A DNA stretch of 64,000 nt, from contig UZAN01039469.1 in assembly GCA_900618425.1 (NCBI GenBank), forward strand, positions 69,838 to 133,837, given 5' to 3'. The notes below the pieces were generated by a model, which was not told the origin of the DNA, ran no database searches, and worked only from the letters and a program-made list of their open reading frames with translations. Below are positions 5,201 through 64,000 of this stretch, piece by piece. Numbering within the stretch: the stretch's first letter is position 1; each line of letters starts with the position of its first letter. The stretch comes from Echinostoma caproni (taxonomy: Eukaryota; Platyhelminthes; Trematoda; Plagiorchiida; Echinostomatidae). The position numbers were made by a program, and so were the translations under genes.

Positions 5201-5529
5201 CAGTGGGAGCCACTTTACGATTGTCTTGTCCTGGTCAACAATCACCAGTAATATACACACACTGGGATTTAAACACGTAGACGGGGATGAGGTGGATGTC
5301 AATTCGACTTGCTGCCCGTTTGGTCTACCTAGGTCGATCCTCAGCGGCTTAATGCCCATGAATGCCAGCGGATATTCAAGCTCGTCTATCATTGCACCTG
5401 AAAGTAATGAATCTTGGGGACGTATGATTGAATTTTGGATGCTTATGAATTGATAATTCGGGTGAAACAGTTCGCCCAAGACTCCACAGCGATGAGTAGC
5501 TAATTGACTCCATACAACAAACACACTTC
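5201..5529 (-). CDS. Predicted long internal exon
   Basis: 329 bases, the longest clean exon. The donor CCACTG|GTGAGC is excellent; the acceptor (cacgtgtaacctccaag) is weak. The frame starts SVFVVWSQLATHRCGVLGEL, includes IDELEYPLAFMGIKPLRIDL, then SPSTCLNPSVCILLVIVDQD and ends TIVKWLPL. It is clearly protein-like, with a C-x5-C pair. Base composition here is richer in G+C than the flanks. Product not recognised. Confidence 0.6.
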
Positions 5530-12599: not shown

Positions 12600-13985
12600 T
12601 AATTAACGATATAAATTGAATCAAACCTGTTAGCCTTATCGAGAGATGCAGCCACACAATCATGTAAACGCTTCCCGGAAATTCAAACATGGGGTTCGGA
12701 TACTAAACTTAGCAGGACTTGTTTCAATTACAACAAAGGAGGCTGCAGAAATGCTTATACGACAGTGGTTAATGCGACTAATAATAAGGCTTAGTACTTC
12801 CCTGTTTACAGTAGATGTTATTTATCTGGACTTCTCTAAGGCATATGATAGGGCAAATCACCAAATACTGAACTATGGAATCGGGGGCTCATAATTGGCT
12901 GAATCGAGGAGTTTCTTTGACTAAGTACCATGTCAATTCGTGTTTCCGATTCACTTTCTAATCCAATAGATACCGCCCGTGGAGTTCCACAGGGATCCGT
13001 GCTAGAACCGTGCCTTATCAATGATCTTCCAGATGTCCTTGGAAAACAAATTCTTGTGTTCGCGGACGATACTAAAATATGCAGGACAATAACAAAACAA
13101 AAAGATTCATTTGATCTCTAGAACGCTCTTGACGAAGCCCACAGGTGGTCTGTTTCCAATGCAATGGAATTTGACGTTATCAAATGCAGTCTTATCACCA
13201 GGTCACAATGGTCGTTTTCGCTTCAGTCTTCATCCGAGAAGGATCTGGGAGTAGTCATTCGCAAAGACTTAAGTTGCTCCACAGACTGTTCCAGGACATG
13301 TTTTATGACGGTAAAGCAGTTTGAGCCAGCTTTGTTTACAGATCCGTTAGTCACATATATCCGACCATACATCGGGTATTCAATTAAGGCCTGGAACCCA
13401 TCGCTGCAGCGAGATCGATAGGCGCTCAAAAATCCGCAGAGAATGGCTACCAAGATGAACAAAGGTCTACATTCTAAGGTCTATGGCGAAAGATTACAGC
13501 TTTTGGAGTTATACTTGTCTCAATATCGTCAAATCAGGGGCGATATGATCTTACTGTATGGGATTTTCCACCAGCCCAACCATTCATGTAGATCTCTTTT
13601 GGTTCTATTAACCAATGTTCATCTCAGAGGGCATCCACGGAAGTTGACACTTCAAAAGAGCCGTCTTAATTACAGACGCTATTCGTTTGCAGTCAGAATG
13701 TGCAGCACATGGAACTGTCTATCACTCCACGTGGTCTCTGCGCCAACATCAGTATCTTTTAGGCGTCAGCTTGATGATGCTCTGGCAAGCATTATGTTTC
13801 AACACCCAACTACATAATATATTCACGTGTGCTCGTCAAAAACATTACAATAATCTTTTACGTACATGAACTAACTGTGATCTTGTGAATCGTGTCCCGA
13901 ACCCAAAGTGTAAACACCCTATGGAATTTGATGAGCAAAGTCTTTGTAAGCTTATGTAAAATAAAAATTTGAATTTAAATTGTTA
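12600..13985 (+). mobile_element. CR1-like non-LTR retrotransposon, 5'-truncated
   Basis: Reverse transcriptase motifs in order: VIYLDFSKAYDRANHQI (12.8 kb), TARGVPQGSVLEPCLINDLP, ILVFADDTKIC with the catalytic FADD at 13059-13070, then DLGVVIRKDLSCSTDC, and the C-terminal block YGERLQLLELYLSQYRQIRG and RGHPRKLTL. A stop follows FDL at 13119 and several frameshifts occur. The 3' end is A/T-rich near 13.98 kb. Same family as 22.7, 50.6 and 62.3 kb. Confidence 0.75.
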
Positions 13986-22689: not shown

Positions 22690-23970
22690 ATGGGCGATTT
22701 AATAAAGCTGAAGCTTATCATACCCCATAGGATTTTTACAGAATATTTGAATAACTTTACAAAAATAAAATAATAATAATATGCATGATCACTCGCGGAT
22801 ATCAAAATGTTAGATGTTCCAATGCTTTAACAAGTTGCGATTTAAATAGTTCAACTGTAGGAGCACGAATAACTTCGGATAGAAGAGAATTCCATATGCC
22901 GCACACTCTGACTGCAAACGAGTGATGCCGGCAATGAAAGTGCCTTTTATGGGTCTTTAACTTTAGTGGGTGTCCTCTGAGGTGATCATGTTGAGATAAA
23001 GTTAGCATAGAATGGCAATGGTGATTGGGTTGATGCAGTATGTGATATGCCAAGCTTATGTTCACCGAAGTCGGCAATATTGAGATGATTAGAGTCCCAA
23101 TATTAGTAGTCTTTTGAAGTATGTCTTGTTATACAAACCTTTTAACAATTTTGTTTGCCAGCCTTTGCAGACGTTCTGGAGCCTTCTTGTCGCGGTTCAA
23201 CCATGGATTCCATATTTGGACGGCGTACTCCGTGTGTGGCCGAACAAACGATGATAGCAAGCATGGGGACAGTGCTCTTTCGATTTGCCCGAAAACACGT
23301 CTGACCAGTCCAACTTGCTGTATAGACATGGATGATGCTCTGGCATGGTGCGTGGAACACCCTACGTCCTCCTGTGCCCTAACTCTCAAATCCCTTTCGT
23401 CAGTGGCATGCGGTAGTATTTGGTTCCCCAGAATATAGAAGAAACGAGTCTTGTACCGCATGGAAATAACTCTGCATTTGAAAACGCTGAACACGATGTC
23501 ATTGGTTGTTGACCATCTATGGGCTGAAATGATCGTTTGTTGGAGTGCTATATAATCCTCAGCATGGGTTACAGTTCCTCAGATCTTTGCGTCGTCCGCA
23601 AATAACAGTGTATTAGGCCCAAGGACATCTGGCAGATTGTTTATAAATGCAAGAAAGAGACGACGCCCCAGTACGGANATAGTCTCAGATGATTACTCAC
23701 CAACACGAACACATGGTTCTTTGTCGGAGAAACTCTTTGATTCAGTCCAAAACCTCTTACTCCGTAGTTGTAGAGTTTTTGCAGTATAATTTGGTGTTTT
23801 ACTCGATCAAATTTTTAAGAGAGATTCAAATAAACCGTATCCAATGGCTGACCTGCATCGACGGATTTCATCCACTCATCTCTAGCAAGAAGGTGAAAGA
23901 AGAAGTCGGAAAGAAAATATTTTAGTGCATCACGATCGACAGCTACTGCAGTTTTTGTAGGGAGATATCC
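22690..23970 (-). mobile_element. CR1-like non-LTR retrotransposon, 5'-truncated
   Basis: The minus strand encodes GQPLDTVYLNLS...FDRVKHQ (23.9-23.8 kb), a segment with INNLPDVLGPNTLLFADDAK (FADD at 23588-23602), then HATDERDLRVRAQEDVGCST, FVRPHTEYAVQIWNPWLNRD and the C-terminal RGHPLKLKTHKRHFHC. Frames shift several times; an N lies at 23678. The 3' end with the tail near 22.69 kb shares cctatggggt-like sequence with the 12.6 kb copy. Confidence 0.75.
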
Positions 23971-24019
23971 AAGACGTGTGGATGTCAACAGCCTTAATGC
24001 CACCACCATCCATCCATCC

Positions 24020-25600
24020 ATCCGACAAATGAGAGCCAGATTCCCTCATTTTCACGCAATGAATCCAGTTCAGTGCCTTTTTACAATGAATGAATCTTTA
24101 ACATTCTTCGATCCTGCAAAGCATCCTCAGCTACAGGACCTGATCATCTTCCTGCGGCACTTATAAAATATGGAGCAGCTTCCCTAACCGATATGCTGAC
24201 ATGCGTCTCAGTGAGTCCCTATCTTTCCCGATCGATTCCTGATTCCTGGCGTCAAGTGGCCATTATTTCAATCCCCAAAAACTCGTTTTCAACCGTTCTT
24301 GCGAAATGGTCTCGTCCCATCGCGTTGACCTCAGGGGCTCTCAAGTTTACTAAAAAGACCACCCTGAGTAGGTTGCAGTCAATCTTCACAATTCCTTAAG
24401 ACCCCTTTCATTTTGCATATAAAGCAAAATGATTTACCCTGGATGCCCTATCCACTCTAAGGCATTTTATCAGCAAATCACTGAAGCCTTCGGTCAAGTC
24501 TGTCTGTTTTGTTTTTCTTGACCATTCTGCGTTTGATTCTGTTTCCTGATTATCCTATTTTTCAAATTTGAATCTCTTGGCACTCCAAGACAGCTGCTCT
24601 CATGGTTTGCTGACAATTTCACACAGAGGGTCCAGTGCACTAAATTAAAAAGGAGGACAACAAAACCTCTTGTTTATAATTCTGGTGTCCTTCTAGGTGC
24701 TGTTCTATCTCCATATTTTTTTTCTGCCTTGATCAGTGATCATTCAGCGCATCCCTGCTTGAATCCAAAAGTATACTGATGACGTTGTTCTGTGTCAGAC
24801 AATTTCATCTCCTTCGGAATTTCATTCTTTTGTCGAGAATCTATCCGACATCTAACTGTATTATGTTCAATCTGGTCTCAGTCATAACATATCTAAGTGC
24901 GCGGAGTGTATTTTCACTCTTTTTCGCTCCTCACTTTCAAAGGACTTTGTAATCCTTAACGGTAAACCTGTATCCAGAGTGACCTCAGTCAAGTTCTTTG
25001 ATGTCTCCATCGACAGTAATCTTCATTGGTCTACACATTTTTACAGCTGTATGGGAAAACTGAGACACCTATCTCTTCAATTACGTAAACTGACGCAATT
25101 CCGTACACCACAGTCATTCCTGTTCTCTTTCGATCATCAATACGTTTTACCCATTCTACTCTATTGCTTCCCTGTAGTGTTTCTCGGTTTTATAAAACAA
25201 AACTTCAAAATAATTTTGCCGTGGTTCGATGATCATCACTCGTGCATCATTGATTCCGATAGATTCATTAATCACAGAACTCATTGATGGTCACAACAAC
25301 TCTTGTGTTACATTTGCTCGTAAGATTCTAGATGACCCTCGTCATCCACTGCACCCTGATCTATCATCTTGTGGTTCCCATCCGTCCACACGCTCCTCAT
25401 TTCGGTATCTACCCTCTAGCATTAACAGTTATAAAAAATCTTCTGTACTGTACCTGGTCCGACTCCTAACCCAAAAGGAACAGGTTGCAAGTGGACTACG
25501 TTAAAAGTTTTGTACATGAAACAAATATCAACGACAATCTTTACCTTTCATTTTTAAATTTTATCATTATTGTTATTATTTCATTCCGCGTGATGAACAG
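24020..25600 (+). mobile_element. Non-LTR retrotransposon of a second lineage
   Basis: The plus strand encodes GPDHLPAALIKYGAASLTDM, then IPDSWRQVAIISIPKN and RPIALTSGALKFTK (finger and palm motifs of non-LTR reverse transcriptase), a broken SGVLLGAVLSP segment, and a C-terminal region with VKFFDVSIDSNLHWSTHF and FRYLPSSINSYKKSSVLY. Frames are broken by stops and shifts. The C-terminus differs from the CR1-like copies, so I place it in another clade, unresolved (jockey/CR1 superfamily). The 3' flank is a T/A-rich attattgtt tract. Confidence 0.65.
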
Positions 25601-50323: not shown

Positions 50324-50354
50324 TGATTTGGCACACCGAGTCATATGCGTCTTG

Positions 50355-50410
<56 letters not shown>

Positions 50411-50441
50411 CAAGACGCATATGACTCGGTGTGCCAAATCA
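50324..50441. repeat. Perfect 118-base palindrome centred on (AT)n
   Basis: Left arm tgatttggcacaccgagtca... and right arm ...tgactcggtgtgccaaatca are exact reverse complements, with a 44-base AT tract at 50361-50404 in the middle. The right arm ends exactly at the N at 50442, suggesting a fold-back assembly artefact. Confidence 0.9.
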
Positions 50442-51340: not shown

Positions 51341-52005
51341 TCAATTTGAAACGTGCATTGCTCAGTACTGTACCATCTACAAGAATTTTGTGTTCTCTTT
51401 TACCGAGATCTGGCCAATTTTAATCAACAGATATTCTCGTATCTCAGCTATCGATGCGAAATAAGTTTAAACACCAAGCTTCGGGTTTACGAGTCTTCTA
51501 TCCGCCCGATCCTCACTTATTCTTGTGAAACCTGGCCACTAAGAGTATAAGATATAAGGAAGTTTGAAGTCTTTGATCACTGGTGATTACGCCGCATCTT
51601 GAAAGTAAATTGGAGAGATCGGATTTCCAATGATGAGGTTCGACGGCGCTACTTGAACATTGACAAGATTTCAAAAATGCTACAACGCCGGCGCCTTCAG
51701 TGGTTTTGCCATATTCTCCGAAGACCCGACACTCAACTCTCGCGACAGACTGTAGCCCCCGCACCATGTGGTGGATGGCATTGCAGACTCGGCGGTCAAT
51801 TGAAGACCTGGAGTAGTACGATCAAGGCGGATTTGAAATTACTGGGTCTTCAATCCGTATATGGAATTCGCAACTGGAACCATAACTGGGTTTCACACTG
51901 CGTCAACCTTGCTACCGATCGTCATGCATGGACCACCATCATTAGAAACATTCAGGAAGCCAACTTATCCTCCCGCAGGAGTTAGTCGATCAAACGTAAC
52001 AGTAG
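51341..52005 (+). mobile_element. RTE-like non-LTR retrotransposon, C-terminal part
   Basis: The plus strand encodes RVYESSIRPILTYSCETWPL, then after a stop FEVFDHW.LRRILKVNWRDR, ISNDEVRRRYLNIDKISKML, RRRLQWFCHILRRPD and RLGGQLKTWSSTIKADLKLL. This is the standard carboxy-terminal module of RTE-type elements (W-R-D-R-xS-N; LRW-GH-xxRxPD). 5'-truncated, with stops. Confidence 0.7.
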
Positions 52006-52430: not shown

Positions 52431-52600
52431 ATGATCAGATGCCCGGGTTGTTGGTATGCTTGCGCTCTACCTGTGAGGTCCCGGGTTCGATTCCCAGTTG
52501 GATCGATTGTTGCACCGCTGATGAGAACCAACCAGGTAGAAACATTTGTCCATGCTTTGTTCCAAGCTTTTCAGCTCATGCCCCATTTATACGACAAATT
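52431..52600 (+). repeat. tRNA-derived SINE with degenerate hammerhead ribozyme
   Basis: The Pol III-like head includes GGGTTCGATTCCC (B box at 52484-52494). At 52518-52550 follow CTGATGAG, a stem II with loop AACCA and a mismatch at the closing pair, GAAAC, a four-base spacer and the GTC cleavage triplet. Stem I pairing is only partial. The order B box, then about 32 bases, then hammerhead matches the element at 62.0 kb. Confidence 0.55.
52518..52550 (+). ncRNA. Hammerhead ribozyme core, degenerate
   Basis: CTGATGAG at 52518-52525, GAAAC at 52539-52543, GTC at 52548-52550 with cleavage predicted after 52550. Stem II GAACC pairs with GGT only in part, so activity is doubtful. Confidence 0.5.
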
Positions 52601-53807: not shown

Positions 53808-54344
53808 CTTAAAAATAAAATCTAACAACGTCAAAGCGTTTTTTGTCACTATTTATGGATTTCTTGCATTAGTATTTTTATAGACTCGCATGGACAGTTG
53901 CCCCCTTTTGGGTAAAAAAAACAATCTGTCTCCGAAAGAAGGAAATTATACGGATAAATCAATCAAATGAAAAATTGTGAAGAAACCCTCTGTTTGTTCA
54001 CAAGGATTCGAGTGAGATAGGGAACTGTAGAACTTTTGTAGAGGTTATTGCGAGAGGGTATTACACGAGAATTATGAGCGGTATTTGGATCGATTGCCGT
54101 TTATAAGATTAATGGAGTCAGAGAGGATTTTCTATGCAAATGTTTCACATATGCACAAGTGTATTTCACAAAGGTTCTAGATTGATAATCAACGGGTATA
54201 AAGGATACACCACTGATAATCGATAAACCACGTAGGACGATTTTGAAGACTTTCCTGATTAGTGCAGTAAAATCACCGGGGATTAACGGAGACCAATCGG
54301 GAAAACACGTTGGTAAACAAAAAGCAAATTACATTTTCCAGAGT

Positions 54345-54490
54345 ATCGTATGCCCCCCAACCCCTCCAAAGCAGTTCGATTACACACACTAGCCACCGCT
54401 GAGGCGTCAGGCATTCACCTGTTCGCACCAGAACTAGGTGCACAAAAGCGACTGGTTCTCCACTTACCCTGGCCCCAAATTGATCATCAA
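54345..54490 (+). mobile_element. Penelope-like element, 3' tail fragment
   Basis: The plus strand reads VRLHTLATAEASGIHLFAPE and then LGAQKRLVLHLPWPQ, the same tail as in the copies at 7.9, 18.9 and 59.4 kb. It is followed by a CAC/CCA-rich simple stretch. Confidence 0.45.
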
Positions 54491-58384: not shown

Positions 58385-58915
58385 CTAATGAGGACAAGGC
58401 AAGAAAAGTTTAGCTTCAAAAATGTCAATTGGCAATCGATCCAACACAAAACATTCAAGGGATTTAAGTCAGGCGAGGCAGTTGTTTAAAACTAACTGAA
58501 TCGGAACGTCAACATCGATGAACTGTAAGCTACCAGTCTGAACAATAAATCATCGATCAGTTGATCGCCTGACTCTCATTCTATCTATTTCTTTGTGAAC
58601 GAAGTTGATGACGAATTGAAATTTAGTTAACTCCGTTGTTTGGATTTTCAGTATAGTCGTATTCGGCGTACCCTGTTTTGTGCAAATCTCCTTTTCTGTG
58701 AAGATATAGTTGGTTTATTCGAACAGGAAACCATGTTGAGAGCTGTCAAAAGTGCCCGAATATACCATTATAAACCGTTGTGAGAAAACACAAAGTAGCG
58801 AACAAGTTCGGTCGCGGTGATTCTTCTACAAGCTAATACATCACAATTCATATCAAACCGTTAAAATTGTTGTTTGGCAGATTTGAAGCTTGTACGTCGA
58901 TTTGGAAAAGTTCAG

Positions 58916-58985
58916 TGGCCTCGGTGGGATTCGAACCCACGCATGGATGCCCCCTACGCTTTGTACGCGCACGCCCTACGAGGCC
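58916..58985 (-). tRNA. tRNA-like sequence (pseudogene or SINE head)
   Basis: 70 bases on the minus strand. The acceptor stem GGCCTCG/CGAGGCC and T arm GTGGG-TTCGAAT-CCCAC are perfect. The D arm is mostly missing (a deletion of roughly a dozen bases relative to the partner at 59074). Anticodon-like loop GTACAAA. Probably not functional. Confidence 0.5.
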
Positions 58986-59073
58986 GCACCGACAGAACTG
59001 ATCCACTGACGTCACATGTCTCTGTAAGCTGTATGGGTAAATTCGAATGTGAAATTATCAGGGCCATCAGTAT

Positions 59074-59155
59074 GGCCTCGTAGCTCAGCTGGTGGAGCGT
59101 GCGCGTACTTAGCGTAGGCGGCGTCCATGCGTGGATTCGAATCCCACCGAGGCTA
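59074..59155 (+). tRNA. tRNA-like sequence with long variable arm
   Basis: 82 bases: acceptor GGCCTCG/CGAGGCT, D arm GCTC-AGCTGGTG-GAGC, anticodon arm TGCGC-GTACTTA-GCGTA (anticodon would be ACT), a variable arm of 14 bases, T arm GTGGA-TTCGAAT-CCCAC with one mismatch. Box A (TAGCTCAGCTGG) and box B (GATTCGAATCC) are good. It is closely related and inverted relative to 58916-58985, which suggests a repeat family rather than a working serine tRNA. Confidence 0.5.
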
Positions 59156-59335
59156 GTGAACTTATATCAAACTGTTTAGAACGCGAGGGGAGGGGGGAGA
59201 AATCATGACAGGTCAGAAAAGTGATAACCAACATCCCAGTTCCATGACCGGATGTTGCTTACACTTTGGTCCTCAAACATGCGCACTAGTTCGGATCATT
59301 AGGGGTGGGTGGGGCTGTGTCGTGTATGGTATTGG

Positions 59336-60480
59336 TCATGAAAGAACAAGTGTTCTTACGCATTGTTTTTTAGAGCATAAAGGGGGGGGGGTATGTGGGT
59401 GGATTCCGATCGCTTCCGCTGTGGCCAAAGTGTGATTCATAATCGTCTTAGATCGGCGGGCGTAAACTAAGTAGAGGGGTCGAAATGCGGTGGCCACATT
59501 AACTACATTGTTCGGTTCCGCTAGATGTGAAACGATTACGCTATTAATGGTCCTAATTACTCCACTATTCAACCAGACCGGGTGCTGCGCACGGACCAGT
59601 TCAGGTAAACGTCTGCTTTTGCGGCCAATGGATCTTGCTCCACAGGAGCACGTAAATAAGTACACACAGAAAGAAAAGGCAGAAACAGGCAATTTATCTT
59701 TGAGTTGAAAGCATAGAAGTGGCCTGGAGATTAACACGATAGGCAGTTTTGCTGCGGGGAATGCCTTTTCTACATTTTTACTCAGCTTGCGTGTTACCAT
59801 ATCGGCGGTTGTGTCGCCCTTNCCCTTGAAAGGTAGCAATGTGCAAATCGGTTTCTTCTTCGCGGCAGTGGTCTTATTTGGTCAACCGATGACGATCCAA
59901 AAATTTGTCCACAAATCGCTCTGGATATCCGTTTCGAAGGAAAACCTCTCGAATAAACCTCAGTTCTGTATCAATGGTATTGTCCATACACATTCTCCGC
60001 GCCCTGATAGCGAGGCGGTGCATTAGGTTCCTTTTCCGTTCCAAAGGCACATAGCTTTTGAAATGGATATACTGATCATTCCACGACGGCTTCTTGTGTA
60101 TGGTGCATCGGATAGTTCCGTTTGATTGACGGCGTAGTAGAATGTCCAGAAATGCAAACTTAATGTTTGGATTAGCTGAATTAAATACTTTCAAGAGTCT
60201 AACCAGATCCACACTGTCAATGGTAAAGCACAAATTGTCATCCCCAAAGCACTTGTAAAATGTGCTACGATCGACTGTTCGTTTTAAGATGTCATTCTCC
60301 AGCTTAAACCATCAATATATCAGCGAACAGTGGACCCAGAAGAGATTCCATTGCTAATCCATCAATTTAGAGATCAACTTCGTCATTGAATTTGATTTTT
60401 ATGTTGTGTGTGCAAAAGTATGGTAATTTTTTTAGATCACCAACTGGTATTCCAATTTCACAATGTCACAACGGTCAAAG
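59336..60480 (-). mobile_element. Penelope-like element with RT core and GIY-YIG remnants
   Basis: Minus strand, about 1.1 kb. It starts near 60.46 kb with IPVGDLKKLPYFCTHNIKIK, followed by a stop, then IDGLAMESLLGPLFADILMV (motif like DGVAMGSPLGP), FYKCFGDDNLCFT (catalytic DD), NIKFAFLDILLRRQSNGTIR, VFLRNGYPERFVDKFLDRHR, and a decayed GIY-YIG segment (FTCSCGARSIGRKSRRLPEL). The tail HTLATAEAIGIHPHTPPP is near 59.4 kb. In-frame stops, frameshifts and an N at 59822 show it is dead. Distinct in sequence from the 8 kb copy. Confidence 0.65.
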
Positions 60481-61739
60481 AAACACTTTTCTTTTAGTTC
60501 ATAGCTATTTCCAAGGGAAACGCCTGTTGAATAAACATCCTTTTTTTCTCGAAATGTTTATCACGTTGATTCATAAATGTGTTTGGGAACCTTTTTTCTC
60601 CGGCATGTAGAAAACTGCTCAATTTTCAAAAAATTATTATCTACGGCAGTTTTTGAAAATCTAGATTGATTCTTATTGCTTGTTCTTGCTCACAGATTGT
60701 TCAGGTATGCTACACGTGTTCATTTCGAATCAGCTGGCATACTTATTCAGTTCAAGGCTTGTCCAATAGATTAAATTTAAAACGCGGTTCCTGAACATCA
60801 TCATACTCCGCTATATGCACTGATCATATGGCGTGCACAAACCAGATCGATAGCCCTTGGGACTATTAACATGATTTCCAGTATTTTTTCTTTCAAATTG
60901 TCCGTCTATAAATATCACGTAGTCATGTGTACCCTTAATCACTGTATTGAAAACAAGAACTATTCAAATAAACAGACACGCTCCTCTCCGAGTCTGATTA
61001 TTTTTTTTACCGTGTTTATTTCAGATTCTCTTCGCAACCTGAGAATTTAAGATCGAAGATAAACAGTTTATTCGGTTATTCATTGTCCGGTTTATATAAC
61101 CATTATGTAAATGGAACTGTATGCTAATAAGTGAAAGTATATGTGACTTGCACTAGGGAAAGGGTAGTTTTCACTTACCCTAATTGGTCTTCATAATCAG
61201 GTTACGTCAGTGGAACGTTTCGAAAATAAGTTACTGTCTGTGAGTGGTTCACCTTCCGCCAGTTCCTCATTGAGCTTCAAAATTAGTTTGCCGAGATCGT
61301 ATAATATGCACGGCTGTAGAGGGAAGGAAGAGAATGTAAGTTGCCAAACAGAGAAGTTACATTCTCTTAGACAGTTTTACACACAAATATACAAAACAAA
61401 ACACCCGAGCCTGATGAATGGTCTGAGGAACAAGTAATAACAGTCCTCCATCAGCAACTGTTGAAGACTAACCATAAAACAGTAAATTCATGCGCACGGA
61501 AGCCAGCCACTCGGGGAGCTATTAACTATACTTCGGCATCTCAAAGAAAAACAAACTGTTAACCCGAGGCAGCATTTCAGTCAGAAGGCATTCGTTCCAT
61601 ACTGTGAACAAAAACACATCCAACTCAGCTAGTGTGTCCTGTGAGCATTGCGACTCCCAATGATTGGAATTTAGACACGCACGTAAGTAGCCTAATGCAG
61701 CTGAATAACACTGTTTAATTTAGATGCTGAATGTTTGGA
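60481..61739. other. No feature recognised
   Basis: Possible decayed 5' part of the Penelope-like element near 60.5-60.6 kb, otherwise nothing. Confidence 0.35.
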
Positions 61740-61839
61740 TTAGCCCATCTGGTTTTTCACAGGCACCGGGCACTTTTGATGATGTTGGTTGTGGGTTTCA
61801 CTCCTTGGGAGATCGTTAATTCCCCANNNNNGTTTGTGA

Positions 61840-61950
61840 TAACTGAGAAATAACACAGAAGATCTGTTTCGTCCTGTTTGAGACTCGTCAGTAGTGTGTA
61901 CTTTTTGAGTCCCTGCCATCATCAACAGTGTTTGATGTCCGAGTGGACTA
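61840..61950 (-). repeat. Hammerhead-bearing SINE, inverted copy
   Basis: The minus strand shares with the 62.0 kb element the upstream gggac-caaaaag block and the downstream ttatcacaa end, with the ribozyme between. The Pol III head is decayed. A 5-N gap adjoins at 61827-61831. Confidence 0.5.
61860..61904 (-). ncRNA. Hammerhead ribozyme core (minus strand)
   Basis: The minus strand reads CTGACGAG, stem II TCTC-AAACA-GGAC-like, GAAAC, a short AGATCT stem III and a TTC cleavage triplet followed by TGTG. The core fits CTGANGA...GAAA. Stem I is short. Confidence 0.5.
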
Positions 61951-61989
61951 ATCCAAACATTCACTATCTAAATTGATTGAGACATTCGC

Positions 61990-62165
61990 ACATGGTGATA
62001 ACCGTCGACTTTGTAGGTCAAATGTAAGAGCTTGAAGTCCCAGTCCGAAGAATCGCACTTCGAGTCCTGATGGGGACAAAAAGAACCCACTGCTGATGAG
62101 TCTAAACCAGGACGAAACAGCTGTCCAGTGTTCTTTGTTGGTTATCACAATTCCATCGCATTCAA
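61990..62165 (+). repeat. Sm-alpha-like SINE: Pol III head plus hammerhead
   Basis: A B-box-like CACTTCGAGTCC lies at about 62056-62067; a possible A box is near 62014. A complete minimal hammerhead follows within about 30 bases. This layout matches the established Sm-alpha family of schistosomes (tRNA-like promoter followed by a hammerhead). Confidence 0.55.
62081..62135 (+). ncRNA. Minimal hammerhead ribozyme
   Basis: CTGATGAG at 62093-62100; stem II GTCT/GGAC with loop AAACCA; GAAAC at 62114-62118; tiny stem III AGCT; GTC at 62123-62125 with cleavage predicted after 62125. Stem I pairs CACTG (62088-62092) with CAGTG (62126-62130) and extends with AAGAA/TTCTT across a small bulge. All conserved core bases are present. 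Confidence 0.7.
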
Positions 62166-62269
62166 AGCTCCTGTCTTTATAGAAGAACCCATAACCGGCC
62201 TGGATGACATATCCACAAGTCCTTGACACCCTGGCAAGTCACAAAGCCTATCCTTTAAGTGTACTGTAC

Positions 62270-63070
62270 CAAAAATTGTTTGAAGATATTTTGCTTCCTC
62301 AGCTGTGGTAAGACGGTTTCATTTCATCAATTTACAAAGATGGATGCCGTAGTGACCCAGCCAACTACCGACCCGTCACTGTCCTTCCAATGTTGCCAAA
62401 AGTCATGGAATCCATTGTCGCAGATTCTGTAATGGACCATCTGCAGAATAATGGCATGCTATCCCCAACCAAGCACGGGTTTCGGAAAATCAGTCATGGG
62501 TAACTAACTCGATTTGGACTCGAGACGATTGGACCCATGCTGTAGACCAAGGCAAGCGGTAGATGTTATTTACGTGATAGGGTAAATCATCAACTACTCA
62601 TACCGACGCTATTTAACTATGGAAGCCGCGGACTCCTACTTGGTTGGATTGAGAAGTTTCTTCGACTACGTACCATGTCAGTTTCGATTCACTTTCTGAT
62701 GTCAACCGTGGAGTTCCACAGGGATCTGTGCTAGGCCCACGTTTTTTCTTTGCCCTTATAAATGAATGATCTTCCACGCGTCCTCGGACCAAAACCTCTG
62801 GCGTTTGTAGGCGATGCCAAAATATGTAGAAAAATCAGAAGGTTCATTTGATCTCCAAAACACCCTTGACGAAGCCCACAGATGATTTGTCTCCAATGAC
62901 ATGGACTTTAACCTTATCAAATACAACGTCTTATCACTAGGTCAGAATGGTTGTTTCTCCTGCATTCTCGGACACGAAACTTTGCCTCATGCTTTATCCG
63001 AGAGGGATCTGGCAATAGTCATTTGCACAGACATGAGTTTCTCCACAAACTGTTCAGCACTGTACAGTGC
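62270..63070 (+). mobile_element. CR1-like non-LTR retrotransposon, internal fragment
   Basis: The plus strand encodes DPANYRPVTVLPMLPKVMES, NGMLSPTKHGFRKISHG, then VNRGVPQGSVLGPRFFFALI, a damaged FADD region (FVGDAKIC), and LDEAHR.FVSNDMDFNLIKY aligning with the 13.1 kb copy. Many stops. Truncated at 3' near 63.07 kb. Confidence 0.65.
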
Positions 63071-64000
63071 TGTTGTTGTTGGTTAGCACAAACATTTCCA
63101 TCATATTTAACATATTTTACTTTCTGATTACTTCCCTGATATGGTCTGCGCGTGACCGAGAAGTTTGTTTTTTTATTTATTTTTTTCTAATGACTGATAA
63201 TATCAAACTGATGATATTAATAGTAATTCATTCAGTCTATTACACATGTAAGAGTACTAAAATCGTTCGACTAGTAAGACAATCATCTCCAGGAGATTCA
63301 AGGTTATCCTCTAAGCTGGTCTAGACGCTGAGTAAAGTATTCATACGACTGGAGTCATTAACGAGAACTTGCTTGGCAAAAAGCAGCAAGTGAATAGAAA
63401 ATCGGCATTCAACTTCATGTATCAAATGTTGCCCCCTACATGAAGGTCCGACCACCGTATCCTATATTAGTGCACACCTTTCAAGAAATTTGTGACCAGC
63501 ATTCGAATATCTGCATCTATACAGTATGGTTAGAGAAATAAATACTGATCCGGAGGCTACAATTAACCGACCACTAGTCGATCACTCCCACTACAGATCC
63601 GAACGCTGTGACCGCATACCAAATGGCCGGGGGAACTCCGCCCCACAACTACAATTATCCGTTCGCTTCACCAGACGTTGCACCTTTCACTGTACATTCA
63701 TTCCTATTATAGCCCTTCAAAGGTTTGACAAGTAGACGTTCCAAACAAGAATGCTCTTCCCATTTCAAAGTAATTCATATAGGTTGTTAGTCTGTAGAAC
63801 AGTCGCGTTATTCAACATTCATTCACACAGCATTTTCTTTCCGTTGAGTGTGATCCGTATCACGCACGCCCGTCTGCATCGTATACTGTGTTTGTTGTTG
63901 AGTTTACCTTTTACGCTTGATTTTTCTTAAGTGTCTATTCCTCATCTAATATTGACCGGACAATGGATTCATTCCACTCGCCGCATTTGCCGAGCCTAGT
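63071..64000. other. No feature recognised
   Basis: Beyond the CR1 fragment, no supported frame or repeat. Confidence 0.4.

What the first reader, a model, noticed from the sequence alone, without database searches (positions are those of the whole stretch)
61990..62165. Complete minimal hammerhead ribozyme behind a tRNA-like promoter
At 62081-62135 all core bases of a hammerhead are present (CTGATGA, GAAA, GTC cleavage triplet), with a paired stem II, a tiny stem III and a paired stem I. A B-box-like sequence lies about 30 bases upstream. Established knowledge: schistosome Sm-alpha repeats have this plan. Inference: this genome has a related self-cleaving SINE family, here inside or beside a large gene, and this copy could still cleave.
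Basis: partly seen in the sequence, partly recalled or inferred. Interest (0 to 1): 0.75.

Follow-up and report, generated by a model that had tools for sequence, protein, structure and literature searches.

The report
Hammerhead ribozyme SINE relic in flatworm
The sequence really holds a complete self-cutting hammerhead RNA motif, and its best reading is an old, isolated copy of a kind of small mobile element already known from blood flukes, lying among other dead transposons.

Summary
Rfam's type I hammerhead model matches 62087-62131(+) at 43.4 bits (cut-off 34, E 8.6e-8). Core bases, 11 of 11 stem I pairs, stem II and a GTC triplet (cut after 62125) are present. The B box is weak (2 mismatches) and no A box stands out. 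Two of three copies thus share the plan 'B box, about 35 nt, hammerhead' of schistosome Sm-alpha SINEs. The neighbours recognised are a LINE remnant and a broken Penelope-like element, not a large host gene (no gene finder was run). In a search with a homolog of the latter, 28 of 30 organism-named hits are flatworms, so the genome is probably a flatworm's. Cleavage is plausible but unproven; energy models favour a blocked monomer, as they do for the Rfam consensus. Genome copy number was untestable (11 of 11 searches unanswered). New member of a known kind, modest interest.

The parts
62080..62136 (+). Focal type I hammerhead ribozyme including the outer part of stem I; predicted cut between 62125 and 62126
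   Evidence: Rfam RF00163 43.4 bits at 62087-62131; pair-by-pair check
62057..62067 (+). Weak B-box-like site (2 mismatches), 36 nt upstream of the ribozyme core start
   Evidence: Consensus scan, consensus recalled
61992..62151 (+). Probable extent of the focal element: closed by a 12-nt inverted repeat 61992-62003/62140-62151 (92%); predicted highly paired RNA
   Evidence: Inverted repeats; fold -50.6 kcal/mol, z -3.17 for 61990-62155; possible 5-nt direct repeat TCGCA at 61986 and 62156, weak
61853..61897 (-). Second, decayed hammerhead on the opposite strand, head to head with the focal one
   Evidence: Rfam 35.4 bits, cut-off 34; 4 of 11 stem I pairs and 1 of 2 stem III pairs broken, triplet CTT; folds no better than shuffles (z 0.18 and 0.78); 74-nt block 81% identical to 62077-62150
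61717..61974 (-). 258-bp imperfect palindrome enclosing the minus-strand hammerhead (31-nt arms 90%, inner 14-nt arms 93%)
   Evidence: N gap inside, no shuffle control
52505..52561 (+). Degenerate third hammerhead copy: core and GTC intact, stems I and II mostly lost
   Evidence: 33 of 46 ungapped identity to the focal motif against a maximum of 27 in 30 simulations; not found by Rfam at E up to 10
52447..52498 (+). tRNA-like head of the third copy, with an exact B box GGTTCGATTCC starting at 52484
62165..63083 (+). LINE (non-LTR retrotransposon) reverse-transcriptase remnant directly downstream; boundary approximate
   Evidence: Translation, and similarity to 12.8-13.3 kb(+) and 23.3-23.6 kb(-); family assigned by eye; pieces of those other two copies gave no Pfam hit above cut-off, this one was not submitted to Pfam
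59297..60465 (-). Penelope-like element remnant (RT plus GIY-YIG endonuclease), frame-broken
   Evidence: tblastn with 92 fetched proteins; homologs in flatworms; 2 of 2 pieces submitted gave no Pfam hit

Best explanation
An isolated, ageing genomic copy of a small non-autonomous retroelement carrying a type I hammerhead: a tRNA-derived SINE of the Sm-alpha / animal non-LTR retrozyme kind in a flatworm genome. Inferred mechanism: the element is transcribed (from an internal Pol III promoter in the better copies, by read-through in this one). The hammerhead cuts the transcript between C62125 and C62126, alone or as a dimer through its palindromic stem III. The unit-length RNA may be circularised by a tRNA ligase and copied back by LINE or Penelope-like machinery in trans. 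Shown here: the motif, its integrity, and three copies of which two share B box and spacing. Inferred: transcription, cleavage, circularisation, mobility.
For: Rfam type I hammerhead, 43.4 and 35.4 bits. Focal copy: all core bases and all stem pairs. Three copies in 64 kb, two with a B box 34 and 36 nt upstream; that agreement by chance is about 6e-5, calculated after the fact. tRNA-like head at 52.5 kb: score 24 against a maximum of 13 in 500 single-base shuffles for a recalled tRNA-Glu. Self-paired RNA, z -3.17, 1 of 200 shuffles as stable. Stem III segment is an 8-nt palindrome as in the Rfam consensus. Literature: Sm-alpha SINEs with hammerhead, and a tRNA-Gln-derived SINE similar to them (PMC2770079, passages); metazoan non-LTR retrozymes including platyhelminths (PMC7229834, section read).
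Against: Flanks of the 62 kb and 52 kb copies are not alike beyond B box and ribozyme (upstream p 0.52 and 0.69, downstream 0.74 and 0.56 under two scorings); the minus copy's upstream flank is alike to the focal one (p 0.009 and 0.01, part of the 74-nt block), its downstream flank not clearly (0.10 and 0.46), and 52 kb against minus not at all (0.95 and 0.69). The focal upstream region is not recognisably tRNA, and Rfam's tRNA model does not match the 52 kb head. No A box at the focal copy. No same-strand tandem copy in the window. No target-site duplication beyond 5 nt. The 52 kb copy is invisible to Rfam, and the minus copy has no B box and folds no better than shuffles. The monomer native fold is -7.5 to -8.5 against -15.4 kcal/mol for a blocked fold.
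Confidence: 0.72

Rival explanations
1. The hammerheads are pseudo-LTR ribozymes of Penelope-like elements (PLEs); the minus-strand copy would mark the 5' end of the degraded PLE at 60465-59297(-), and the plus copy would be a stray from the same source.
For: A PLE remnant lies on the same strand as the minus hammerhead, about 1.4 kb downstream of it, a distance that could fit a lost N-terminal part. PLEs carry hammerheads (PMC6155905 passages; PMC11167929 passages). A 14-mer is shared by the palindrome arms and the PLE coding strand at 60162.
Against: PLE-type minimal hammerheads usually lack the non-conserved helix III bases (PMC7761336 passage); here 8 nt are present. The focal copy is on the strand opposite the nearby PLE. 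No PLE coding was detected between 60465 and 61853 with 92 proteins, which are at most 542 aa long and probably do not reach the N-terminus, so this is weak. The two plus copies carry B boxes.
Confidence: 0.15
2. The focal hammerhead is a 5' ribozyme of the adjoining LINE, processing its RNA as HDV-like ribozymes do for some non-LTR retrotransposons (recalled; similar roles are mentioned in a PMC7761336 passage).
For: Same strand, directly upstream of LINE coding that starts about 62165.
Against: By eye the LINE piece begins inside the RT domain, so it looks 5'-truncated. Two related copies in the window (12.8-13.3 kb and 23.3-23.6 kb) have no hammerhead near them by Rfam, though they may be truncated too. 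The second and third hammerheads were not seen next to such a LINE start.
Confidence: 0.04
3. Intact-looking but non-functional fossil: same origin as the best explanation, but RNA from this copy does not cleave because of the alternative fold.
For: Blocked fold favoured; native inner stem I pair probabilities 0.02-0.09 and stem III 0.0 (energies).
Against: The same model also disfavours the native fold of the Rfam consensus monomer (-7.8 against -12.8), and it ignores tertiary contacts; the dual form comes to -30.9 against -30.8.
Confidence: 0.08
4. Chance resemblance.
For: Small motif; the B box alone is weak.
Against: E 8.6e-8 plus a second copy above cut-off, about 190 nt away on the other strand, with 81% identity over 74 nt.
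Confidence: 0.01

Closest known systems
Sm-alpha / Sj-alpha SINE-like elements of Schistosoma (Ferbeyre 1998, Laha 2000; both seen only as cited in PMC2770079, PMC8490949 and other papers)
   Same: Type I hammerhead with tiny palindromic stem III, behind a B box / tRNA-like head (at 52.5 kb; weak at the focal copy); dispersed copies in a probable flatworm genome
   Different: Focal unit about 160 bp against 335 bp for one Sm-alpha-like W-element (PMC8490949 passage); no sequence comparison to Sm-alpha was possible; copy number unknown; head-to-head with a palindromic copy
Metazoan non-LTR retrozymes (Cervera and de la Pena 2020, PMC7229834)
   Same: Type I hammerhead, small size, highly self-paired RNA, no coding capacity seen
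   Different: No tandem array here; no circRNA or expression evidence; TSD at most 5 nt
Hammerheads of Penelope-like element pLTRs
   Same: Very short stem III; a PLE remnant lies nearby
   Different: Helix III bases are present; focal copy on the opposite strand from the PLE; B boxes upstream of two copies
Hammerhead-bearing W-elements of S. mansoni (W25.2, W36.2; PMC8490949)
   Same: Type I minimal hammerheads with extremely short stem III in satellite-like repeats; 3 of 5 tested candidates cleaved in vitro (section 11)
   Different: No satellite array of hammerheads in this window

Membership tests
Type I hammerhead ribozyme (Rfam RF00163) | Covariance score at or above the curated cut-off | tested here: met
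   43.4 and 35.4 bits against 34; third copy not matched at E up to 10
Type I hammerhead ribozyme (Rfam RF00163) | Invariant core, NUH triplet and three paired stems | tested here: met
   Focal copy complete; minus and 52 kb copies have broken stems
Type I hammerhead ribozyme (Rfam RF00163) | Self-cleavage activity | not testable with these tools
   Needs in vitro transcription
Sm-alpha-like hammerhead SINE | tRNA-derived head with Pol III A and B boxes upstream of the ribozyme | tested here: inconclusive
   Exact B box and head resembling recalled tRNAs at 52.5 kb, not matched by Rfam's tRNA model; focal B box 2 mismatches, no A box; minus copy no B box
Sm-alpha-like hammerhead SINE | Sequence homology to Sm-alpha outside the ribozyme | not testable with these tools
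Sm-alpha-like hammerhead SINE | High copy number in the genome | not testable with these tools
   The genome search unanswered 11 of 11 times; 3 copies seen in the 64 kb window
Metazoan non-LTR retrozyme | Tandem repeats of 150-450 bp with a type I hammerhead | tested here: not met
   At this locus: no same-strand second hammerhead near either plus copy; elsewhere in the genome untested
Metazoan non-LTR retrozyme | Highly self-paired monomer RNA | tested here: met
   z -3.17 for 61990-62155
Metazoan non-LTR retrozyme | Target-site duplication of LINE type | tested here: inconclusive
   Only 5-nt matches at the plus element, none of 5 or more at the minus element
PLE pLTR hammerhead | Usually lacks non-conserved helix III bases | tested here: not met
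   ACAGCTGT present at 62117-62124
PLE pLTR hammerhead | Lies at the start of a PLE ORF on the same strand | tested here: inconclusive
   Not met for the focal copy; for the minus copy the N-terminal PLE region could not be recognised

The most novel reading that the evidence does not exclude
Segment 61717-62151 (435 bp) could be a DNA copy of a small viroid-like circular RNA with hammerheads in both polarities, so that each strand of a rolling-circle replicon could cut itself, rather than two separate SINE insertions that happened to land head to head. Not excluded: both hammerheads pass Rfam, they lie about 190 nt apart on opposite strands, and each sits in a stretch with closing inverted repeats. 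Against it: the minus hammerhead has broken stems and folds no better than shuffles.
Probability: 0.03. Interest if true: 0.8.

Novelty: new member of a known kind. Interest (0 to 1): 0.28.

Why it matters
If confirmed genome-wide, it adds a family to the known hammerhead retroelements of flatworms and gives a copy to test for cleavage. It would help show whether B-box-driven Sm-alpha-like elements and non-LTR retrozymes are one lineage, and whether Penelope-like elements or LINEs move them. It does not change the existing picture.

Tried and rejected
Chance: rejected on the Rfam E-value and the second copy. PLE origin and LINE 5' ribozyme: kept as rivals. Whole-flank homology between the 62 kb and 52 kb copies: tested, not found. 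Homology of the focal upstream region to tRNAs: not found against five recalled tRNAs. One of the two neighbouring tRNA-like sequences (59073-59156) as source of the head: not significant (52 kb copy p 0.06 and 0.20; focal copy p 0.32 and 0.39); the other was not tested. A loose core pattern gave 7 sites on both strands; I kept 3 and dropped 4 (42275+, 38922-, 36338-, 33919-) that matched only the loose pattern. A 28-of-46 match at 5254(-) exceeds the simulated maximum of 27, but its hammerhead core is broken; dropped. RAGATH-1 hammerhead: 19.1 bits against cut-off 56.3, not accepted. A viral contigs pattern scan gave 0 matches. A PDB sequence search with P0001 gave 0 matches. A homolog search with a LINE ORF gave none. 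Pfam: 0 of 10 ORFs above cut-off.

Paper searches were for hammerheads in flukes, retrozymes and Penelope-like elements. I saw listings and then passages or sections of eight papers. The fluke cases I saw were schistosome ones and I saw no report naming this element; but one search listed only 5 of 1,767 papers, none with the word hammerhead, the species here is unknown, and most subscription papers are not held. So this is no proof of absence.

Full report
Observation. Rfam release 15 gave three matches at curated cut-offs in the 64 kb window: type I hammerhead at 62087-62131(+), 43.4 bits, E 8.6e-8; type I hammerhead at 61853-61897(-), 35.4 bits, E 3.8e-5; and a tRNA at 58916-58985(-). In the focal copy CTGATGA, GAAA and GTC are present; 11 of 11 stem I pairs, 4 of 4 stem II pairs (one G-T) and 2 of 2 stem III pairs form.

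The other copies. The minus-strand copy keeps the core, but 4 of 11 stem I pairs and 1 of 2 stem III pairs are broken and the triplet is CTT; it folds no better than shuffles (z 0.18, 110 of 200 as stable; z 0.78, 161 of 200). It shares a 74-nt block, 81% identical, with the focal copy in inverted orientation. It lies within a 258-bp imperfect palindrome with 31-nt arms at 61717-61747 and 61944-61974, 90% complementary, and inner 14-nt arms. A third site at 52505-52561(+) matches the focal motif at 33 of 46 bases, where 30 simulated 128-kb first-order sequences reached at most 27. Its core and GTC are intact but most stem I pairs and 2 of 4 stem II pairs are lost, and Rfam does not report it even at E up to 10.

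The promoter claim. The focal B box (62057) has two mismatches; 55 sites at that level or better occur in the window on both strands. No A box stands out upstream of the focal copy (3 mismatches at best); upstream of the minus copy there is a 2-mismatch A-box match at 61950, a level reached 562 times in the window. Against five tRNAs recalled from memory the focal upstream region does not exceed shuffles, while the 52 kb upstream region does for four of five (best tRNA-Glu, 24 against a shuffle maximum of 13; tRNA-Gln did not, 38 of 500 shuffles reaching it). Against this, Rfam's tRNA model does not match the 52 kb head at E up to 10 and ARAGORN reports only one tRNA in the window, at 59073-59156. 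The 52 kb copy has an exact B box 34 nt before the core; the focal one is 36 nt before; the minus copy has none within 60 nt. The chance of both with agreeing spacing is roughly 6e-5, computed after seeing them. Beyond this the flanks of the 52 kb and 62 kb copies do not align better than shuffles, so the kinship of the 52 kb copy rests on ribozyme identity, B box and spacing.

Surroundings. LINE-type reverse-transcriptase coding, with stops and frameshifts, begins about 62165(+). Part of it (62615-63055) matches 12871-13291 at 69% DNA identity, and its translation matches 12.8-13.3 kb and 23.3-23.6 kb. Rfam shows no hammerhead near either of those copies. On the minus strand 60465-59297 is a frame-broken Penelope-like element with RT and GIY-YIG parts, found by tblastn with 92 fetched proteins. 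The homolog search that supplied most of them used P0001, itself a 45%-identical relative of the window's endonuclease ORF. Of its 89 hits, 30 bear an organism name: 28 flatworms (Trichobilharzia, Schistosoma, Spirometra/Sparganum, Dicrocoelium, Echinostoma, Paragonimus) and 2 bins labelled as bacteria. The window is therefore probably from a flatworm, perhaps a trematode; the species is not known. I recognised no large host gene around the ribozyme, but ran no eukaryotic gene finder.

Folding. The stretch 61990-62155 folds at -50.6 kcal/mol against -39.3 (sd 3.6) for shuffles, z -3.17, 1 of 200 shuffles as stable. The 59-nt focal ribozyme has z -2.86 and the 45-nt core z -1.53, but their best fold is not the hammerhead. 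The ribozyme prefers a blocked fold: native -7.5 (-8.5 without stem III) against -15.4. The Rfam consensus shows the same tendency, -7.8 (-8.8) against -12.8, though less strongly, so the model cannot decide activity. A two-molecule dual hammerhead through the palindrome ACAGCUGU comes to -30.9 against -30.8 for two blocked monomers. Retrozyme papers describe blocked hammerheads in plant retrozyme RNAs (PMC4918200 passages) and dimeric cutting for amphibian retrozymes (PMC7229834 abstract).

Comparison with known systems. PMC2770079 (passages) reports about 38,500 hammerhead candidates in S. mansoni and a tRNA-Gln-derived SINE similar to Sm-alpha. PMC8490949 (passages and section 11) shows active hammerheads in W-elements and names the 335-bp Sm-alpha-like W36.2_W001. 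PMC7229834 (abstract, passages and two sections) describes metazoan non-LTR retrozymes as repeats of 150-450 bp, often tandem, and mentions platyhelminths. PMC6155905 and PMC7761336 (passages) state that PLE hammerheads usually lack helix III bases, which are present here. PMC11167929 (passages) and PMC3088659 (passages) were also consulted. The best filing is a single dispersed member of the Sm-alpha / non-LTR retrozyme kind; the tandem arrangement of retrozymes is not met at this locus, so I do not file it as a retrozyme outright.

Activity, transcription and circularisation are inference.

Noticed in passing
61717-61974: 258-bp imperfect palindrome around the minus-strand hammerhead; predicted fold of 61715-61976 is -88.8 kcal/mol (N gap inside, no shuffle control). 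A rod-like RNA, a foldback element or an inverted duplication would all fit.
   Followed up: partly
60162(-), 61730(-), 61948(+): The 14-mer CTAATCCAAACATT occurs three times in the window: in the Penelope-like coding strand and in both arms of the palindrome. Chance or a trace of shared origin.
   Followed up: partly
58916-58985(-) and 59073-59156(+): Inverted pair of tRNA-like sequences, 69% identical over 58908-59163.
   Followed up: no
7.6-9.0 kb(-), 18.0-18.2 kb(-), 18.3-19.0 kb(+), 20.8-21.1 kb(+), 54344-54481(+): Further Penelope-like fragments, some weak.
   Followed up: no
about 50327-50440: A TA-rich simple repeat produces many sub-threshold microRNA family matches in Rfam; probably an artefact.
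   Followed up: no
22802-25287, 12634-13817, 51587-51985: Several ORFs that look by eye like LINE reverse-transcriptase remnants; the five submitted to Pfam gave no hit above cut-off.
   Followed up: partly
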